Source of the DNA: an archaeon | Lineage (GTDB): Archaea; Hydrothermarchaeota; Hydrothermarchaeia; JALTZZ01; JALUTC01 | Assembly: GCA_027051265.1 (NCBI GenBank) | Contig: JALTZH010000031.1 | Location: 1-6,046 of the forward strand | Length of the DNA: 6,046 bases | Direction of reading: 5' to 3' | Shown here: positions 70 through 6,046 of the stretch, piece after piece | How positions within the stretch are numbered: the first letter of the stretch is position 1 | Layout of the letters: each line of letters starts with the position of its first letter | Program-made: the position numbers and the translations under genes | The notes under the pieces: generated by a model | The model's database searches: none | The model's input: the letters and a program-made list of their open reading frames with translations, nothing else | What the model was told of the DNA's origin: nothing

Positions 70-648
70 ATGGTTAGCTTTAAAATACTGATGTTAATTG
101 GTTTAATGATAGTAAGCATAACAGTTATGCCAAACATACTAGCAAAGTTTCAAGGACAACACTATTTCATAGCTCCCCAAAACGTTCAATGTACCAAATG
201 CCACGCCGATGTTGCTCAAGAGTTAAATCAATCAATGAGTGAGCAACAAATACATACATCTCTAGGTACTACATTAGAAGATGCGTGTAGAGCTTGTCAT
301 ATAACAGCAGCTTCAAACAAGAATATGCAATTCCACGCAGCAGCATTGGTTGAATGTCTAGCATGTCACGATGGATCATGGACAGCACCTGTACCTGCAC
401 CAAATGTACTAACAGGTCCTAGACCAATAAATGGCACTGATGCTGCACATAGACCATTCATAGAAGCGATGAACACATCCTTCACAACACTATCAGGTCC
501 AAATGAAGCATGTATAGCATGCCATACTCATGCAGGAAAAGCTGTATTAACAGAATACAGCAATTACACGGTTCATGCAAACTTCAGTTGTACAGATCCT
601 GCAGATATAAACACGTGTAGTTGGACTTTCTCCATAAGTGTACAATAA
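70..648 (+). CDS. secreted tetraheme c-type cytochrome, candidate extracellular nanowire subunit
   Basis: Predicted 192-residue exported cytochrome. Residues 1-25 form a signal peptide with likely cleavage at ILA|KF, leaving a mature protein of about 167 residues starting near KFQGQHYF. Four CxxCH heme-binding motifs start at C41, C73, C96 and C148. Non-motif His residues H31 (GQHYF), H62 (IHTS), H89 (FHAA) and H127 (AHRPF) each have a counterpart in the leftward nonaheme protein, so they are likely distal ligands giving four bis-His hemes. H154 and H169 are additional. C174 and C183 near the C-terminus are outside any heme motif and may form a disulfide. The protein is Ala/Thr-rich with only five Lys, unlike its Lys/Ile-rich neighbours, and has five N-x-S/T sequons. 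Small tetraheme secreted cytochromes of this kind form extracellular cytochrome filaments in Archaeoglobus and Pyrobaculum; assignment to that family is inference from layout. A soluble periplasm-like electron carrier is the alternative. Start chosen by the GGTGAT site. Confidence 0.85.
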   Translation: MVSFKILMLIGLMIVSITVMPNILAKFQGQHYFIAPQNVQCTKCHADVAQELNQSMSEQQIHTSLGTTLEDACRACHITAASNKNMQFHAAALVECLACHDGSWTAPVPAPNVLTGPRPINGTDAAHRPFIEAMNTSFTTLSGPNEACIACHTHAGKAVLTEYSNYTVHANFSCTDPADINTCSWTFSISVQ

Positions 649-661
649 CTATACTTAATAC

Positions 662-1360
662 ATGATTAAAAAATTTCTTTTTTATTTTTTAACTGTAGCA
701 GGATTTATTTTGATATTATTGTCATTTATTTCTCTCGTTGTTGATATATTTACAAGAAATATCATTTACTCGTTAATTGACCTCCTCTTTTTAATTATTG
801 GTGCTATAATACTTAAGGTAGGTTATGATTTAAAGGAACATAAAGAAGAAAAAAGAAAAGAAACGGGAATAGAACCAATGTTAATCGGTTTAGGTAGATT
901 ATGTATGGAATTAGACTCTCTAAGAAAAACTATCGAAAGATTGGATGAGAAACTAACTACTATGGAAAAGTTTTCTAGAGGAGGTTTTTCAGCACTTTTT
1001 CAAAAAATTTTACTCGCATCAATAGTATCTCTTGGAATATTAATGATTGTTGTGATTTATACTTCGTTAGAGATGATATTCTTTATAAATTTCCTATACT
1101 TTATCTGGTGGTTTATAATATCAGAACACTTTAAACTGTTAAATGATATAAGATCATATATCTGGATTGTTGCAATAATGTTTATATCACCAGTAATAAT
1201 AATGATTCTCGTAGCTATACTAGAATTGGAATTAATATTAGTAGCGTTGTTCCAGTATATACTGTTATCGTTATATACTTTTATATATTATATTTATGCG
1301 TACAGGATAAGATATAAAAGAATACCGTTTTTTGAATCTCATGCCAGTGGTGTAAGATGA
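662..1360 (+). CDS. polytopic membrane protein with cytosolic coiled coil, unknown function
   Basis: 232 residues, not recognised as a known family. Two hydrophobic segments (about 5-28 and 35-55) are followed by a charged stretch (56-112) containing a heptad-like helix at about 77-104 (LCMELDSLRKTIERLDEKL). Four more hydrophobic segments follow (about 114-133, 136-154, 165-187, 190-213) and then a short basic tail. This suggests six membrane helices with the coiled-coil loop inside the cell. The start is 13 bases after the cytochrome stop and has no visible Shine-Dalgarno site, so it may depend on coupling or on a leaderless transcript. The stop overlaps the signal peptidase start by ATGA. 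Position between a filament-type cytochrome and a signal peptidase suggests a role in export, assembly or anchoring (inference). There are no cofactor motifs, and nothing indicates a transporter or an enzyme. Confidence 0.8.
   Translation: MIKKFLFYFLTVAGFILILLSFISLVVDIFTRNIIYSLIDLLFLIIGAIILKVGYDLKEHKEEKRKETGIEPMLIGLGRLCMELDSLRKTIERLDEKLTTMEKFSRGGFSALFQKILLASIVSLGILMIVVIYTSLEMIFFINFLYFIWWFIISEHFKLLNDIRSYIWIVAIMFISPVIIMILVAILELELILVALFQYILLSLYTFIYYIYAYRIRYKRIPFFESHASGVR
674..690 (+). terminator. oligo-T stretch, possible partial terminator after the tetraheme gene
   Basis: The non-template strand reads TTTCTTTTTTATTTTTT, beginning 26 bases after the cytochrome stop codon and lying within codons 5-10 of the next gene. 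Archaeal RNA polymerase terminates at T-rich stretches without needing a hairpin. The run could end a fraction of transcripts after the cytochrome gene. It also encodes part of a hydrophobic helix (FLFYFL), which alone could explain the T content. Confidence 0.4.
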
Positions 1361-2094
1361 AATTAAATGAAATTATTGTTTTATACTATAGCATTCTGCT
1401 AGTAACAATCGCACTAACAATAGTTATTGTTCTAATGAGGAATACGTTATTTAAACGTAAAAAACGTTTCTCAGATAGAGATTATATTATATTCTACAGA
1501 AGAATAATTAGAAGGAGAAAATCTTCTATCAGCATACTTATATCTCTACTCATATATTTCATATTAGGTATTATTATACTAAAGAAATATGTCTTTCTTG
1601 CTGTGGTTACATCGAATAGTATGTCTCCAACCATAAAACTATACGATCTTGTATTAATACAAACCATTGATAGAAATCCGAAAGTTGGAGATATTATCTT
1701 GTTTAAAGGAAAACCAGCTGATATTGAAAGAAGGGAGTTGATATTGCATAGAGTTGTAAAAATTACAGAAGAAGGTATTTACACGAAAGGTGATGCCAAT
1801 CCTACAATTGATCCATGGATCGTTAAAAGAGAAGAAATTGTTGGAAAAGCTGTTCAAATATATAATGTTCCTATAAAAATACCTTATTTAGGTAAATTTC
1901 TATTAGAAACTACAGAGAGTCCAACAGGTAGGACATATTTTCAAAGAATAATCAGTTATGTAAAACTTCATGGTATAGTAATATTCTTTTTAATAGCAAT
2001 AATATATATAGTTATTTCATATTATGAAAATATAAGAGAAAGACATTTGGAAAACAGATTAAAAGAAATAATAAAATCCAGAGGTGTTAAATGA
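1357..2094 (+). CDS. signal peptidase I, S26B (archaeal/Sec11) type
   Basis: 245 residues. It removes signal peptides from Sec-exported proteins at the outer face of the membrane. The catalytic Ser is S88 in TSNSMSPT. The general-base position is H131 in ILHRVV, where bacterial LepB has Lys. GDAN and a second Asp follow (D146, D152), with the six-residue spacing known for the functional Asp pair in archaeal/Sec11 enzymes. The conserved VGDIILF box is at about 110-116. Topology: helix 4-26, a very basic cytosolic loop (about 33-57), helix about 58-80 leading into the catalytic domain, then helix about 205-222 and a basic tail. The first helix is extra compared with minimal archaeal signal peptidases. 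The start overlaps the previous stop (ATGA), with GGTG at 1349-1352 as the ribosome site. A signal peptidase inside a cytochrome/surface-protein operon suggests it may process these neighbours, but a general role is not excluded. Confidence 0.9.
   Translation: MKLNEIIVLYYSILLVTIALTIVIVLMRNTLFKRKKRFSDRDYIIFYRRIIRRRKSSISILISLLIYFILGIIILKKYVFLAVVTSNSMSPTIKLYDLVLIQTIDRNPKVGDIILFKGKPADIERRELILHRVVKITEEGIYTKGDANPTIDPWIVKREEIVGKAVQIYNVPIKIPYLGKFLLETTESPTGRTYFQRIISYVKLHGIVIFFLIAIIYIVISYYENIRERHLENRLKEIIKSRGVK
2081..2086 (+). promoter_or_regulatory. Shine-Dalgarno site for the multiheme cytochrome
   Basis: GAGGTG lies four bases before ATG 2091 and seven before the adjacent ATG 2094, inside the last codons of the signal peptidase gene. 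Either ATG is possible; they differ by one Met. Confidence 0.6.
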
Positions 2095-2777
2095 TGCATA
2101 AGCTTATCTTGCTCTTTATGTTTAATTTTATATTTAGTGTTGTATATGGTATTGTATATGCAGAAAAGAATATAAATACAACCAAAGGTTTTCTTGAAAC
2201 ATATGAGAAATATTTATTAGCATGGAAACATACAGGAAATAAGATATGCTTTGAATGTCATATGTTAACCCTAAGCAAAGACGAATATGAAAGAAAATTT
2301 TCTGGATGTAATTGTCATGAAATAAAAGCTATTAGAGGAGAAAGGAGATATAAGATCGATATGAGTGCTCTTTCAAAATTACATGGAACTAAACCATGTA
2401 TAAGATGTCATTCCGGAGGATATTCTAAAATAAATCTTACCATATTTCATTTCAATATACATAGAATGGTAAACTGTACGACATGCCATGGTTATGGTAT
2501 GGCTATAAAGGTTGAAGATATTAACAACTGTTATAATTGTCATGAAAAAAACATTCATTATATCCATACAAGAGTTCTTAGAGATTTGTGCTCATTTTGT
2601 CATAGTAAAACTTTTGCATTAGAATATACTGAAAGAGAATTAAAGAAAATCGGTTTTAATTTATCTTTAGAGAAAAAACCTAAAGAAAAAAAGAAAGAGG
2701 TGAAGGAATTTGAAGGGCCAACTATTCTTAAGATATTATATACTATTATTAATTTTATTGTTTCTATATTTAAGTAA
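2091..2777 (+). CDS. exported penta/hexaheme c-type cytochrome with C-terminal membrane anchor
   Basis: 228 residues. A signal peptide (about 1-24, VYA|EK) precedes five CxxCH motifs at C53, C103, C129, C147 and C167. A sixth site, CNCH at C73, has only one residue between its cysteines. The mature part has exactly six non-motif His residues (H47, H98, H120, H124, H156, H159), which would match six bis-His hemes if the CNCH site is occupied. A Lys/Glu-rich linker (about 194-208) leads to a final hydrophobic stretch (about 211-227, TILKILYTIINFIVSIF), probably a tail anchor. The heme domain would therefore sit just outside the membrane. It shows no clear similarity to the tetraheme/nonaheme pair beyond heme motifs. 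A role carrying electrons between a membrane donor and an outer cytochrome is inferred. It overlaps the signal peptidase by ATGA and the next gene by 68 bases. Confidence 0.85.
   Translation: MMHKLILLFMFNFIFSVVYGIVYAEKNINTTKGFLETYEKYLLAWKHTGNKICFECHMLTLSKDEYERKFSGCNCHEIKAIRGERRYKIDMSALSKLHGTKPCIRCHSGGYSKINLTIFHFNIHRMVNCTTCHGYGMAIKVEDINNCYNCHEKNIHYIHTRVLRDLCSFCHSKTFALEYTERELKKIGFNLSLEKKPKEKKKEVKEFEGPTILKILYTIINFIVSIFK
2697..2703 (+). promoter_or_regulatory. strong Shine-Dalgarno site inside the cytochrome gene, sets a TTG start
   Basis: GAGGTGA, a seven-base match to the anti-SD, lies six bases before TTG 2710. It sits in the codons for the Lys/Glu linker of the multiheme cytochrome. It is the main evidence that the next gene starts at 2710 and overlaps the cytochrome gene. 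Confidence 0.6.
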
Positions 2778-3132
2778 TTGTATAAAACCAGTGAAAATAT
2801 CTGCATTTGAAATAGAAGCTATTATAGATAAGAATTACAACATAACATATCTTGATTGTAATTATGTTGAAGTTTCACCTGATAAGTTAAATATTGGTGA
2901 AGAATACTATCCATCAGTTGTCTTTAGAGTTTTCGTATCTAGTAAAAATAGGAGTTATGCTACGGAATGGGGAATTATAAAATTCAAAGGTCCAGGAAGA
3001 TATAGTGCTGTATTACCATTAACTGAAAGGTATAAATTACAGAGAAATGATATCATTCTATGCTATGCATCGTTGAGGGATAAGGAGGCAAAAACAGTAG
3101 TATATAAAGTTGTTAAGAAAGCGTATAGATAA
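2710..3132 (+). CDS. small exported or membrane-tethered beta-rich protein, unknown function
   Basis: 140 residues from a TTG start supported by the GAGGTGA site. Residues 5-22 are hydrophobic (signal peptide or anchor), ending LYLSNC. C24 could be a lipobox cysteine, but Asn at -1 is unusual, so lipidation is uncertain. The remaining roughly 115 residues alternate in a beta-strand pattern and include a GPGRYSAVLPL turn similar in style to the Ig-like modules of the next protein. C50 and C118 could form a disulfide. The first 68 bases also encode the C-terminal tail of the preceding cytochrome in another frame. The stop is one base before the ATG of the next gene, indicating co-translation. 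An Ig-like surface accessory protein is the best guess; no family is recognised. Confidence 0.75.
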   Translation: MKGQLFLRYYILLLILLFLYLSNCIKPVKISAFEIEAIIDKNYNITYLDCNYVEVSPDKLNIGEEYYPSVVFRVFVSSKNRSYATEWGIIKFKGPGRYSAVLPLTERYKLQRNDIILCYASLRDKEAKTVVYKVVKKAYR

Positions 3133-3133
3133 C

Positions 3134-4798
3134 ATGAAGAAGAGAGTTAGATTATTAGATTTATATTATAATTATAATATAATTATTAAGTTATATTTAT
3201 TCATAGTATTAATAACTTTTTCTATTTCCTATGCTGAAGTATCTTTCGTAAAAAACGTTTATGGTTATAAAAAGTTTGAAAAACATAATGGAACGTTTTA
3301 TTTGGGAGATGAGATTAAGATTTATATTGATATAGAGGATGTATCTCATGAAGGTTTCACAGCCGTTGATTTTCTATTCTTTATAAGAGATGAAATTACA
3401 AAAGAGGTAATAAAGATAGATAGAGTTAACGTTAGATATAAAAATTTTACGGATAAATTTTATATCGTTTATAAACTTGATACGAGTAAACTTAAGCCCG
3501 GAAGATATTCGATAAAAATTTTAGGATACGATAGAGCAATAGGAGTAGAAAATCGCTTAAGATTGATAAAAAGTGGTGCATTAGATCCAAGTTCTAAGTA
3601 TCATGAACTCTATAAGAAATATCTCAATGCACCTACAGGTTTAAATGTTGATGATAGAATTTACTCTAACTTAAAGTTACTGAGACCTTATAAAGAAAGT
3701 TTATTGAGAATTGATAAGACACTTAAATTTCAGATAATTAAGGGAAAACGAAAAATTGAAAAGATAGAAAAACCAACTATTGCAATAAAGAATTTTTATG
3801 TTAGAGTTAATGATACGTATTATCTTGACGATCTTATAGTTATAGAATATAATTTAGAAGGATTAATTCATAACAAAACTTTAACTGTTGATATATACAC
3901 ACTTTTATATAATAAAAACAACGTTCCTCTTAAATTAAAAATTGATAGAATTAGATTTGTAAATATATCCGAATATAAGTTTATACAAAGAATCGATACG
4001 AAAGGATTAGATCCAGGTATTTATTATTTACGAATTAAAATATTTGATCGATATCAACGATCTCTAATAGAAGCATATAAAGAAATTGTGGAAAGATTTC
4101 CTAAAAGTATTGATCTCATTAAAAACATAAGATATATAGATGAAGGAGTGAATATAAACGATAAAACATACGAAATATTGAAGATAATAAAACCTCTTGA
4201 TAACAGTTTATTAGTACATGATAAAACCTATAGGATAAATTTAATAGAAAAACCTTTGGAAATTAAACCAAAACCAAGATTTATTGTAAATAGAATTGAA
4301 ACCGATAAAATTGAGTATGATATCAAAGATACGATTAAAATTAAAGTGTATATAACAAATTTAAGAGGTGAGGGTAACGTTACATTCTATCTTAGAATAG
4401 AAGGAAAAGAATTTGGTATAAGAGTTCCGAAAACAATTTATCTCAAACCTAAAAAAGAATACATAATAGATTTCAATATCCCCATTGAAAAATATAAACT
4501 CAAAGATGGTTTTTATAGGGTTGGAATAGAAGGTGTTAAAATATTTACGTTAATAAGAATTATTAATAAGACAGCTCTTACAAAAGCAATCGAAGAAAGA
4601 TTAAAACCTGTTACTGAGAAAGAAAAAGAGGTTAAATCTCCTCTAATTATTTATTACCTTTCAGGATTTCTACTCAGTACATTATTCTTAAGAATACTTT
4701 TTAACAGAAATAATGTTTATAAACGATATCTGAATTATTTGATCATATTATTTGTATTACTTCTAATTATCTACTTATTAATATATTTATATATGTAA
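3134..4798 (+). CDS. large surface protein with tandem Ig-like repeats and C-terminal membrane anchor
   Basis: 554 residues from ATG 3134, one base after the preceding stop; an in-frame TTG at 3110 is a weaker alternative without a suitably spaced Shine-Dalgarno site. A signal peptide ends near residue 34 (ISYA|EV). Two long units follow (about 36-213 and 215-374). Each has an Ig-like beta domain containing a LxPGxYxxxI turn (KLKPGRYSIKI, GLDPGIYYLRI), then a linker module G-x-N-x-x-D ... LK ... P ... SLL ... DKT. A third beta domain lies at about 381-477, then a charged helical linker and two hydrophobic segments (about 503-523 and 532-554). Architecture suggests an elongated extracellular stalk held in the membrane. 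There is no catalytic motif, heme motif or cysteine. Last gene of the rightward operon; it may scaffold or anchor the cytochromes (inference). Family not recognised. Confidence 0.8.
   Translation: MKKRVRLLDLYYNYNIIIKLYLFIVLITFSISYAEVSFVKNVYGYKKFEKHNGTFYLGDEIKIYIDIEDVSHEGFTAVDFLFFIRDEITKEVIKIDRVNVRYKNFTDKFYIVYKLDTSKLKPGRYSIKILGYDRAIGVENRLRLIKSGALDPSSKYHELYKKYLNAPTGLNVDDRIYSNLKLLRPYKESLLRIDKTLKFQIIKGKRKIEKIEKPTIAIKNFYVRVNDTYYLDDLIVIEYNLEGLIHNKTLTVDIYTLLYNKNNVPLKLKIDRIRFVNISEYKFIQRIDTKGLDPGIYYLRIKIFDRYQRSLIEAYKEIVERFPKSIDLIKNIRYIDEGVNINDKTYEILKIIKPLDNSLLVHDKTYRINLIEKPLEIKPKPRFIVNRIETDKIEYDIKDTIKIKVYITNLRGEGNVTFYLRIEGKEFGIRVPKTIYLKPKKEYIIDFNIPIEKYKLKDGFYRVGIEGVKIFTLIRIINKTALTKAIEERLKPVTEKEKEVKSPLIIYYLSGFLLSTLFLRILFNRNNVYKRYLNYLIILFVLLLIIYLLIYLYM
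3638..3739 (+). repeat. linker module, copy 1 of an internal protein repeat
   Basis: Encodes 34 residues starting GLNVDDRIYSNLKLLRP. Aligned without gaps to copy 2 (4145-4246), 14 of 34 residues are identical, including G, N, D, Y, LK, P, SLL and DKT, and many others are conservative changes. The DNA has diverged, so this is an old duplication. Confidence 0.7.
4145..4246 (+). repeat. linker module, copy 2 of an internal protein repeat
   Basis: Encodes 34 residues starting GVNINDKTYEILKIIKP, the partner of the copy at 3638-3739. It follows the second Ig-like domain just as copy 1 follows the first, so domain and linker were duplicated as one unit. Confidence 0.7.
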
Positions 4799-4814: not shown

Positions 4815-6014
4815 TTATCGTAATTCTCTATATATCCATATGTTTGCCTCATATGCATATGGTTCAGTATATACTTTATTTGTTACATATCCCCCTCTAT
4901 TACCATGACATATAGAACATCTTCCTCCTCCCATACCATTTCCACCCATTCCACCTCCTCCTGTTCCAATAGTTACGTCATGATTGTTATAATGATGACA
5001 TCCGGAACAAAAATCGCCATGGAATTGTCTTGGAACCTTTTTCCAAACTTGCTGGTAAAAATATGGTGAGTAATGACCTCCCTGATTAATTTCTTCTATA
5101 CTAGGAGGATACGGTCCTGATTCGTTATGACATGTTAGGCATGAAAGCTTAAGTGCCGCATGTACAGATGAGGAATTATATGTTGGATAAATATTCCATT
5201 GAGGATTTAAATGACAATATTTACAAAAGCTTTCGTTATCGGCGTTTGTTTTACTTATATAAATATCATATATATGCTCAATGAAATTTAGATTTGCATT
5301 ATTTCCTCGATCAGATAAATTTCTATCACCAACATCATCTGTATGTTGCATTCCCTGAAGTGGAGTTGATCCTGGAGACCATTTATCAAGTACTCCTTGT
5401 AATATTCTTTTATGGCAGGCAGTACACTTAATCTTATTAGGATTAATCCAATAGTGGCTGCTCTTTATCTCATAACCATAATCCTTAATTACAGTATAAT
5501 TACGTTTTGGTCCAAGATTAAATGATACGATTGTATAATTATATCTTAAAGGCTCTATTTCAACATTATCGATAAAAACCGTATAGTTAATCCATTCGTA
5601 GTAGTTTAAAACCAGTTTAACAGGAAATGTTGTATGACATGCTATACATGCTTCATTTGGTCCCTTTTTTAATCCATATTTTTCAGCAAACAGTATAAAA
5701 TCTCTATGAGCTTCTAAAGAGTTATTTATGTTATCTGCAATATTAACATGACAACTAAGACATGTAATTGTAGTTGCTGCATGTGCAGTATTGTTTGAGA
5801 ACGAAACATTATGACATGTTCTACATGTAAATCCACTACTCGTATTATGTATCTCTGATATCGTTAAATAATAAGCTTGAGAAGGATGACATTTTGAACA
5901 ATCAATATTACTTCCAGGTATAAAATAATGTTGTCCTGTAAATTTTGATAATACATTAATACCAAAAAATAGTGAGAATATTGCAAATCCTAATATTAAA
6001 ATCAAGTTCCTCAT
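4815..6014 (-). CDS. secreted nonaheme c-type cytochrome with nanowire-type N-terminal domain
   Basis: 399 residues from ATG 6014; ATG 6038 in frame would add eight. ATG 6014 gives a signal peptide matching the tetraheme protein in length, cleaved near VLS|KF. Nine CxxCH motifs start at C39, C64, C85, C123, C197, C264, C292, C336 and C366. The first four, with H29, H56, H78 and H103, align with the tetraheme protein: KFxGQHYF, the IH before heme 2, HAA before heme 3, AHRxF, and an identical GPNEACIACHT around heme 4. A heme-free, beta-rich insert (about 130-190) follows, then a five-heme region. A glycine/methionine-rich loop (about 350-364) separates hemes 8 and 9. Twelve non-motif His residues are available as distal ligands, and about eleven N-x-S/T sequons suggest surface glycosylation. 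The mature protein has no cysteine outside heme motifs. Likely extracellular electron transfer; possible roles are filament cap, base, branch or a separate conductor (inference). Confidence 0.85.
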   Translation of the reverse strand: MRNLILILGFAIFSLFFGINVLSKFTGQHYFIPGSNIDCSKCHPSQAYYLTISEIHNTSSGFTCRTCHNVSFSNNTAHAATTITCLSCHVNIADNINNSLEAHRDFILFAEKYGLKKGPNEACIACHTTFPVKLVLNYYEWINYTVFIDNVEIEPLRYNYTIVSFNLGPKRNYTVIKDYGYEIKSSHYWINPNKIKCTACHKRILQGVLDKWSPGSTPLQGMQHTDDVGDRNLSDRGNNANLNFIEHIYDIYISKTNADNESFCKYCHLNPQWNIYPTYNSSSVHAALKLSCLTCHNESGPYPPSIEEINQGGHYSPYFYQQVWKKVPRQFHGDFCSGCHHYNNHDVTIGTGGGGMGGNGMGGGRCSICHGNRGGYVTNKVYTEPYAYEANIWIYRELR

Positions 6015-6037
6015 AAAAATTATAAAGCATTTTAACA

Positions 6038-6046
6038 TAAATATAG
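6038..6046 (-). promoter_or_regulatory. possible TATA box for a leaderless nonaheme transcript
   Basis: Read leftward, CTATATTTA is centred about 28 bases before ATG 6014, the spacing expected between an archaeal TATA box and the transcription start of a leaderless gene. No Shine-Dalgarno site precedes this ATG. The BRE would lie beyond the window edge, and TATA-like strings are common in such AT-rich DNA, so support is weak. Confidence 0.3.

What the first reader, a model, noticed from the sequence alone, without database searches (positions are those of the whole stretch)
70..648. Candidate archaeal extracellular cytochrome nanowire subunit
Seen: a small exported protein with four CxxCH motifs, four distal His residues conserved in a paralogue, few Lys, many sequons. 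Known: tetraheme cytochromes polymerise into conductive extracellular filaments in Archaeoglobus veneficus and Pyrobaculum calidifontis. Inferred: this protein belongs to that class. Its mature N-terminus would begin within a few residues of GQH, placing a His ligand where it might reach a heme of a neighbouring subunit.
Basis: partly seen in the sequence, partly recalled or inferred. Interest (0 to 1): 0.75.

Follow-up and report, generated by a model that had tools for sequence, protein, structure and literature searches.

The report
Archaeal cytochrome nanowire subunit and operon
This hydrothermal-vent archaeon carries a close family member of the protein that Archaeoglobus veneficus polymerises into electricity-carrying surface filaments, and the gene sits in a conserved six-gene operon that follows this protein family across two archaeal phyla and probably exports, trims and powers the filament.

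Summary
ORF 70-648 is an exported 192-aa tetraheme c-type cytochrome. Its best and only significant match among all solved structures is 8E5G, the A. veneficus nanowire subunit AvECN (single sequence E=4.5e-13; family profile E=1.1e-23). In 31 homologues, including AvECN, exactly eight His are invariant: four in CxxCH and four distal (H31 in GQH, H62, H89, H127). Three of AvECN's four distal ligands are reported to come from another subunit. The second archaeal nanowire, PcECN (8E5F), is not a detectable relative (E=8.2), so 'that class' means AvECN only. Polymerisation itself is untested, and an AlphaFold monomer was too poor to use.

The gene heads an operon: a 6-TM protein, an archaeal signal peptidase, a membrane-anchored multiheme cytochrome, a small lipoprotein and an Ig-like membrane protein. 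The TM gene occurs in 20/22 AvECN-type-positive and 0/21 negative genomes of A. veneficus's family, and in 35/39 versus 0/18 elsewhere in its phylum. The peptidase and TM pair was noted earlier in ANME archaea. Facing the operon, a 407-aa cytochrome fuses the nanowire domain to five more hemes: a candidate filament-end adaptor. Verdict: new member of a known kind, with an informative locus.

The parts
70..648 (+). AvECN-family tetraheme cytochrome, proposed nanowire subunit (ECN); signal peptide ~1-25, invariant P21, F27, GQH31
662..1360 (+). TM232: 6-TM membrane protein with a central coiled-coil-like helix and an invariant WW pair (W149, W150); no Pfam/NCBIfam family, no solved fold matched; tracks ECN across genomes
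1357..2094 (+). Signal peptidase I, archaeal type (S26B; TIGR02228 above cut-off); conserved Ser (SNSM), His (HRV), Asp (GDA..D); proposed ECN-dedicated peptidase
2091..2777 (+). MHC228: exported multiheme cytochrome, five CxxCH plus one CxCH, C-terminal hydrophobic anchor; proposed membrane-side electron feeder
2710..3132 (+). LP140: small lipoprotein-like protein (LSNC; LSGC or LSAC in relatives); true start probably downstream of TTG 2710
3134..4798 (+). IG554: exported Ig-like/CARDB-containing protein with C-terminal TM segments; proposed anchor or assembly factor; tracks ECN across genomes
4815..6038 (-). MHC407: ECN-like N-terminal domain (all eight ligand His) fused to five further CxxCH; proposed filament-end adaptor

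Best explanation
ORF 70-648 encodes a subunit of an AvECN-type extracellular cytochrome nanowire. It is exported as a preprotein, receives four c-type hemes outside the membrane and is cleaved near residue 25. It then polymerises by giving distal His ligands (H31 near the new N-terminus being one candidate) to hemes of the next subunit, making a continuous chain of bis-His hemes that carries electrons away from the cell. The five downstream genes are its biogenesis and feeding set: a dedicated signal peptidase and 6-TM protein for processing or heme handling, a membrane-tethered multiheme cytochrome to load electrons, and a lipoprotein and Ig-like protein to anchor or guide the filament. MHC407 may join one filament end. 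Shown: homology to AvECN, ligand conservation, operon, co-occurrence. Inferred: cleavage, polymerisation, inter-subunit ligation in this species, and the role of each partner.
For: AvECN is the only significant PDB match (E=4.5e-13; profile E=1.1e-23). All eight axial His and eight Cys are invariant in 31 sequences including AvECN. In AvECN three of four hemes are distally ligated from another subunit (PMC12203936). The same gene order occurs in a same-genus genome and, with one or two ECN copies, in the same order and class. The module is rearranged but intact beside ECN in three complete genomes of A. veneficus's family. In A. veneficus itself (G410, 100% AvECN match) TM232-S26-IG554 sit together about 1 Mb from the nearest ECN gene. 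TM232: 20/22 versus 0/21 and 35/39 versus 0/18 in ECN-positive versus negative genomes; at least 30 of 70 TM232 genes lie within 10 kb of an ECN gene. Ten TM232-negative, ECN-negative genomes still have MtrC/F-type multiheme hits, so the gene follows ECN better than multiheme cytochromes at large. P21 and F27 flank the predicted cleavage site and are invariant 31/31 in ECN, but P21 is not kept in MHC407-type fusions.
Against: No filament has been seen from this host or any member of its class. The AF2 monomer was low confidence and matched nothing. Identity to AvECN is only about 30-35%, and the window protein lacks AvECN's C-terminal extension. Co-occurrence counts are not phylogenetically independent, and the query profiles came from ECN-positive genomes. 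The peptidase/TM pair was earlier proposed to mature giant ANME cytochromes (PMC9012536), so it may serve several multiheme proteins.
Confidence: 0.85

Rival explanations
1. An AvECN-family protein that stays a soluble or surface-bound tetraheme carrier and shuttles electrons without polymerising.
For: Polymerisation is untested; the window protein is shorter than AvECN and lacks its C-terminal part; related small multiheme proteins were described in ANME without an assigned filament role (PMC9012536).
Against: All eight ligand His are invariant although in AvECN three hemes get theirs in trans; a monomeric carrier of this fold would leave those hemes under-ligated. No better match to soluble c3-type proteins (1i77 E=0.046 versus 8e5g E=1.1e-23).
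Confidence: 0.1
2. The downstream S26/TM232 genes are general multiheme-cytochrome maturation factors, not nanowire-specific ones.
For: Chadwick et al. proposed this for a signal peptidase plus an unannotated membrane protein next to giant ANME cytochromes, also present in Geoglobus and Ferroglobus (PMC9012536); the operon also holds other cytochromes.
Against: Genomes with MtrC/F-type multiheme hits but no ECN lack TM232 (10 genomes); TM232 lies beside ECN in at least 30 genomes.
Confidence: 0.35
3. MHC407 is a separate surface terminal reductase that merely shares ancestry with ECN, not a filament-end adaptor.
For: It is encoded on the other strand and has its own signal peptide; multiheme domain fusions are common.
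Against: All eight ECN ligand His are invariant in 12 fusion proteins, and the fusions lie directly beside ECN genes in A. veneficus's family.
Confidence: 0.4

Closest known systems
AvECN (F2KMU8, PDB 8E5G), Archaeoglobus veneficus cytochrome nanowire
   Same: Tetraheme, exported, eight invariant axial His, GQH near the N-terminus, aligned from the signal peptide to beyond the fourth heme; S26, TM232, IG554 and an MHC228 homologue also in that genome.
   Different: About 30-35% identity, shorter C-terminus; in A. veneficus TM232-S26-IG554 lie about 1 Mb from the ECN genes rather than in their operon.
MmcX of a Methanocellales archaeon (PMC11176372) and small MHCs of ANME/Syntrophoarchaeum/Archaeoglobales (PMC9012536)
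   Same: Described AvECN-like or small extracellular multiheme cytochromes in archaea.
   Different: Other lineages; the window's class was not among those named in the texts read.
PcECN (A3MW92, PDB 8E5F), Pyrobaculum calidifontis nanowire
   Same: Archaeal tetraheme nanowire with the same heme stacking pattern (literature).
   Different: No detectable sequence relationship (E=8.2).
Signal peptidase + '8x TMH' pair of ANME, Geoglobus, Ferroglobus (Chadwick et al. 2022, PMC9012536)
   Same: Peptidase next to an unannotated integral membrane protein, similar distribution, conserved Trp.
   Different: Described beside giant S-layer cytochromes and not tied to nanowire subunits; identity with TM232 is likely but was not checked by sequence, and 8 TM helices are stated there against 6 predicted here.

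Membership tests
AvECN-type extracellular cytochrome nanowire | Full-length sequence homology to AvECN | tested here: met
   8e5g E=4.5e-13, 1.1e-23 with profile
AvECN-type extracellular cytochrome nanowire | Four CxxCH hemes and eight bis-His axial ligands in register | tested here: met
   exactly eight invariant His in 31 rows
AvECN-type extracellular cytochrome nanowire | Exported, no retained membrane anchor | tested here: inconclusive
   N-terminal hydrophobic segment with A/S at the likely site and no second segment seen in the sequence; no signal-peptide program was available
AvECN-type extracellular cytochrome nanowire | AvECN fold | tested here: inconclusive
   AF2 pLDDT 52, no fold match
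AvECN-type extracellular cytochrome nanowire | Distal His donated between subunits; helical polymer | not testable with these tools
   no heme-loaded oligomer prediction or microscopy
PcECN-type nanowire | Sequence homology to PcECN | tested here: not met
   8e5f E=8.2
OmcS/OmcE/OmcZ nanowires | Sequence homology to their PDB chains | tested here: not met
   none listed at E<=10
Soluble tetraheme c3 / small tetraheme carriers | Closest match is a soluble carrier | tested here: not met
   1i77 E=0.046, partial, against 8e5g E=1.1e-23
Archaeal signal peptidase I (gene 1357-2094) | TIGR02228 above cut-off with Ser/His/Asp conserved | tested here: met
   64.3 bits vs 51.85; S88, H131, D146, D152 invariant

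The most novel reading that the evidence does not exclude
The operon is a dedicated archaeal nanowire assembly system: a signal peptidase and 6-TM protein specific for the ECN precursor release the H31-bearing N-terminus needed for subunit linking, an Ig-like protein anchors the filament, and ECN-fusion cytochromes such as MHC407 cap or base the wire and connect it to surface cytochromes.
Probability: 0.35. Interest if true: 0.75.

Novelty: new member of a known kind. Interest (0 to 1): 0.5.

Why it matters
How archaeal cytochrome nanowires are exported, processed, anchored and fed with electrons is open; the texts read describe structures and conductivity. A module that follows the AvECN family across two phyla, with an invariant cleavage-site signature and an ECN-domain fusion protein, gives concrete genes to test. 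It also extends the family to a vent lineage outside the phylum of the Archaeoglobales.

Tried and rejected
AF2 of the ECN monomer with 13 homologues: unusable; its fold search gave nothing. AF2 of TM232 was fair (pLDDT 80) but neither Foldseek nor VIA-align gave a convincing full-length match, the high-Z rows covering helical hairpins only, so no fold-based function. TM232 sequence profile against PDB: only coiled-coil noise. IG554 profile: CARDB/Ig-like C-terminal domain only. Membership in the PcECN family rejected. Relation to MtrC/MtrF (Pfam PF22113, 25 bits against a cut-off of 30) judged a shared multiheme pattern. The 2023 Cell paper on AvECN/PcECN is not held, so whether it already describes this neighbourhood could not be checked. 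Host phylum could not be named: the contig set matches GenBank WAOB01 (isolate S141_124_esom, labelled 'DPANN group archaeon'), but genome sizes of 0.8-2.4 Mb in its class do not look like typical reduced DPANN genomes.

Full report
Observation. The reading frame 70-648 is open, starts with ATG at 70 (GTG 58 possible), and encodes 192 aa with four CxxCH at residues 41, 73, 96 and 148. In 20,000 shuffles of the protein no more than two CxxCH arose. There are five Lys and five sequons.

What it is. phmmer against all PDB chains returns 8e5g_A at E=4.5e-13 over residues 7-183 and nothing else below 0.01. PMC12954529 lists 8E5G as AvECN, the A. veneficus nanowire. A profile of 13 homologues from the same class raises this to E=1.1e-23, while 8e5f (PcECN) scores E=8.2. 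In an alignment of 31 proteins, including AvECN taken from its genome, the invariant columns are P21, F27, A91, the eight CxxCH Cys, and exactly eight His: 31, 45, 62, 77, 89, 100, 127, 152. H154 and H169 vary. Published work states that three of four AvECN hemes are coordinated distally by His from another subunit (PMC12203936). The window protein therefore keeps every ligand that AvECN needs to polymerise, including those given in trans. A tree puts the window class and the A. veneficus family in two separate fully supported groups, so there is no sign of recent transfer.

Host. The second ECN contig of this genome (G000:C67, 4528 bp) gives the same ORFs as GenBank WAOB01000002.1, isolate S141_124_esom, labelled DPANN group archaeon. 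PMC9793634 associates S141-named MAGs with Brothers volcano vent deposits.

The locus. Six same-strand genes follow each other with gaps of 13 bp or less, or overlaps: ECN, TM232, signal peptidase, MHC228, LP140, IG554. A same-genus genome has the identical order. Genomes of the same order and class have the same set with one or two ECN copies, some with an MHC407 gene or a 34-61-heme cytochrome beside it. Complete genomes of the A. veneficus family (G110, G217, G414; Ferroglobus/Geoglobus by size, inferred) carry MHC228, IG554, S26, TM232 and ECN together in another arrangement.

Co-occurrence. A. veneficus is G410 (100% identity to AvECN); its TM232, S26 and IG554 genes cluster at 1.645-1.649 Mb. 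In its family, TM232 is present in 20 of 22 ECN-positive and 0 of 21 negative genomes, IG554 and the specific S26 in 21 of 22 and 0 of 21. Elsewhere in its phylum TM232 is present in 35 of 39 ECN-positive and 0 of 18 negative genomes. In the window class it is present in 14 of 16 positives; of seven genomes without a strong ECN hit only G014 has it, and G014 has a weak ECN-like hit beside an S26 gene. At least 30 of 70 TM232 genes lie within 10 kb of an ECN gene. Ten ECN- and TM232-negative genomes do have MtrC/F-type multiheme hits. These counts share ancestry and are not independent tests. Weak IG554-profile hits in some ECN-negative genomes are short CARDB-type matches.

Prior art. Chadwick et al. 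2022 noted a signal peptidase and an unannotated integral membrane protein with conserved Trp, found in ANME, Syntrophoarchaeum, Geoglobus and Ferroglobus, and suggested cytochrome maturation (PMC9012536). The same paper noted a widespread group of small multiheme proteins. That pair is very probably S26+TM232, but this was not tested by sequence. What is added here is the link to AvECN-type subunits, the two further partners IG554 and MHC228, and the spread to another phylum.

Mechanism. Inferred: Sec export, heme attachment, and cleavage by the co-encoded peptidase. P21 and F27, at about -5 and +2 of the likely site, are invariant in 31 ECNs; P21 is not kept in the MHC407-type fusions. That is unusual for a signal peptide and fits a dedicated peptidase. 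Cleavage would free a short N-terminal arm carrying H31. MHC407 keeps all eight ligands in its ECN domain and adds five CxxCH, so it could occupy a filament end. The paralogue on C67 lies beside NrfD (PF03916, E=2.6e-44), a 4Fe-4S protein and a hexaheme protein, a plausible quinol-to-cytochrome entry point.

Limits. No filament evidence, no heme-loaded modelling, a poor monomer model, no function from the TM232 fold, and the Cell 2023 paper could not be read.

Noticed in passing
window 2091-2777 (residues 73-76): The second heme site of MHC228 is CxCH (CNCH) here and in most homologues, including A. veneficus (CRCH), but CxxCH (CTPCH) in the Geoglobus/Ferroglobus-like genomes; a possible non-canonical heme motif.
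   Followed up: partly
L044 (G000:C67) 197-4347: A second ECN gene of the same genome lies near NrfD, 4Fe-4S and hexaheme cytochrome genes, suggesting a quinol:cytochrome oxidoreductase feeding the wire.
   Followed up: partly
L091 11816-12634 and 12806-13594 (A. veneficus): The tandem AvECN copies have nearly identical C-terminal parts but divergent N-terminal parts, as if by gene conversion or module swapping.
   Followed up: no
L036 99-7601, L046 9269-14038, L041 3201-8408: Giant cytochromes with 34-61 CxxCH sit directly beside ECN genes in class relatives.
   Followed up: no
G008:C9, G012:C52, G015:C89, G022:C39 (class relatives): Divergent ECN-like proteins with S26 and a weakly matching TM232 nearby, perhaps a second ECN subtype.
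   Followed up: no
G407:C61:4209-4964, G416:C15: ECN genes with in-frame stops, apparently decaying; G407 also lacks TM232 and IG554.
   Followed up: no
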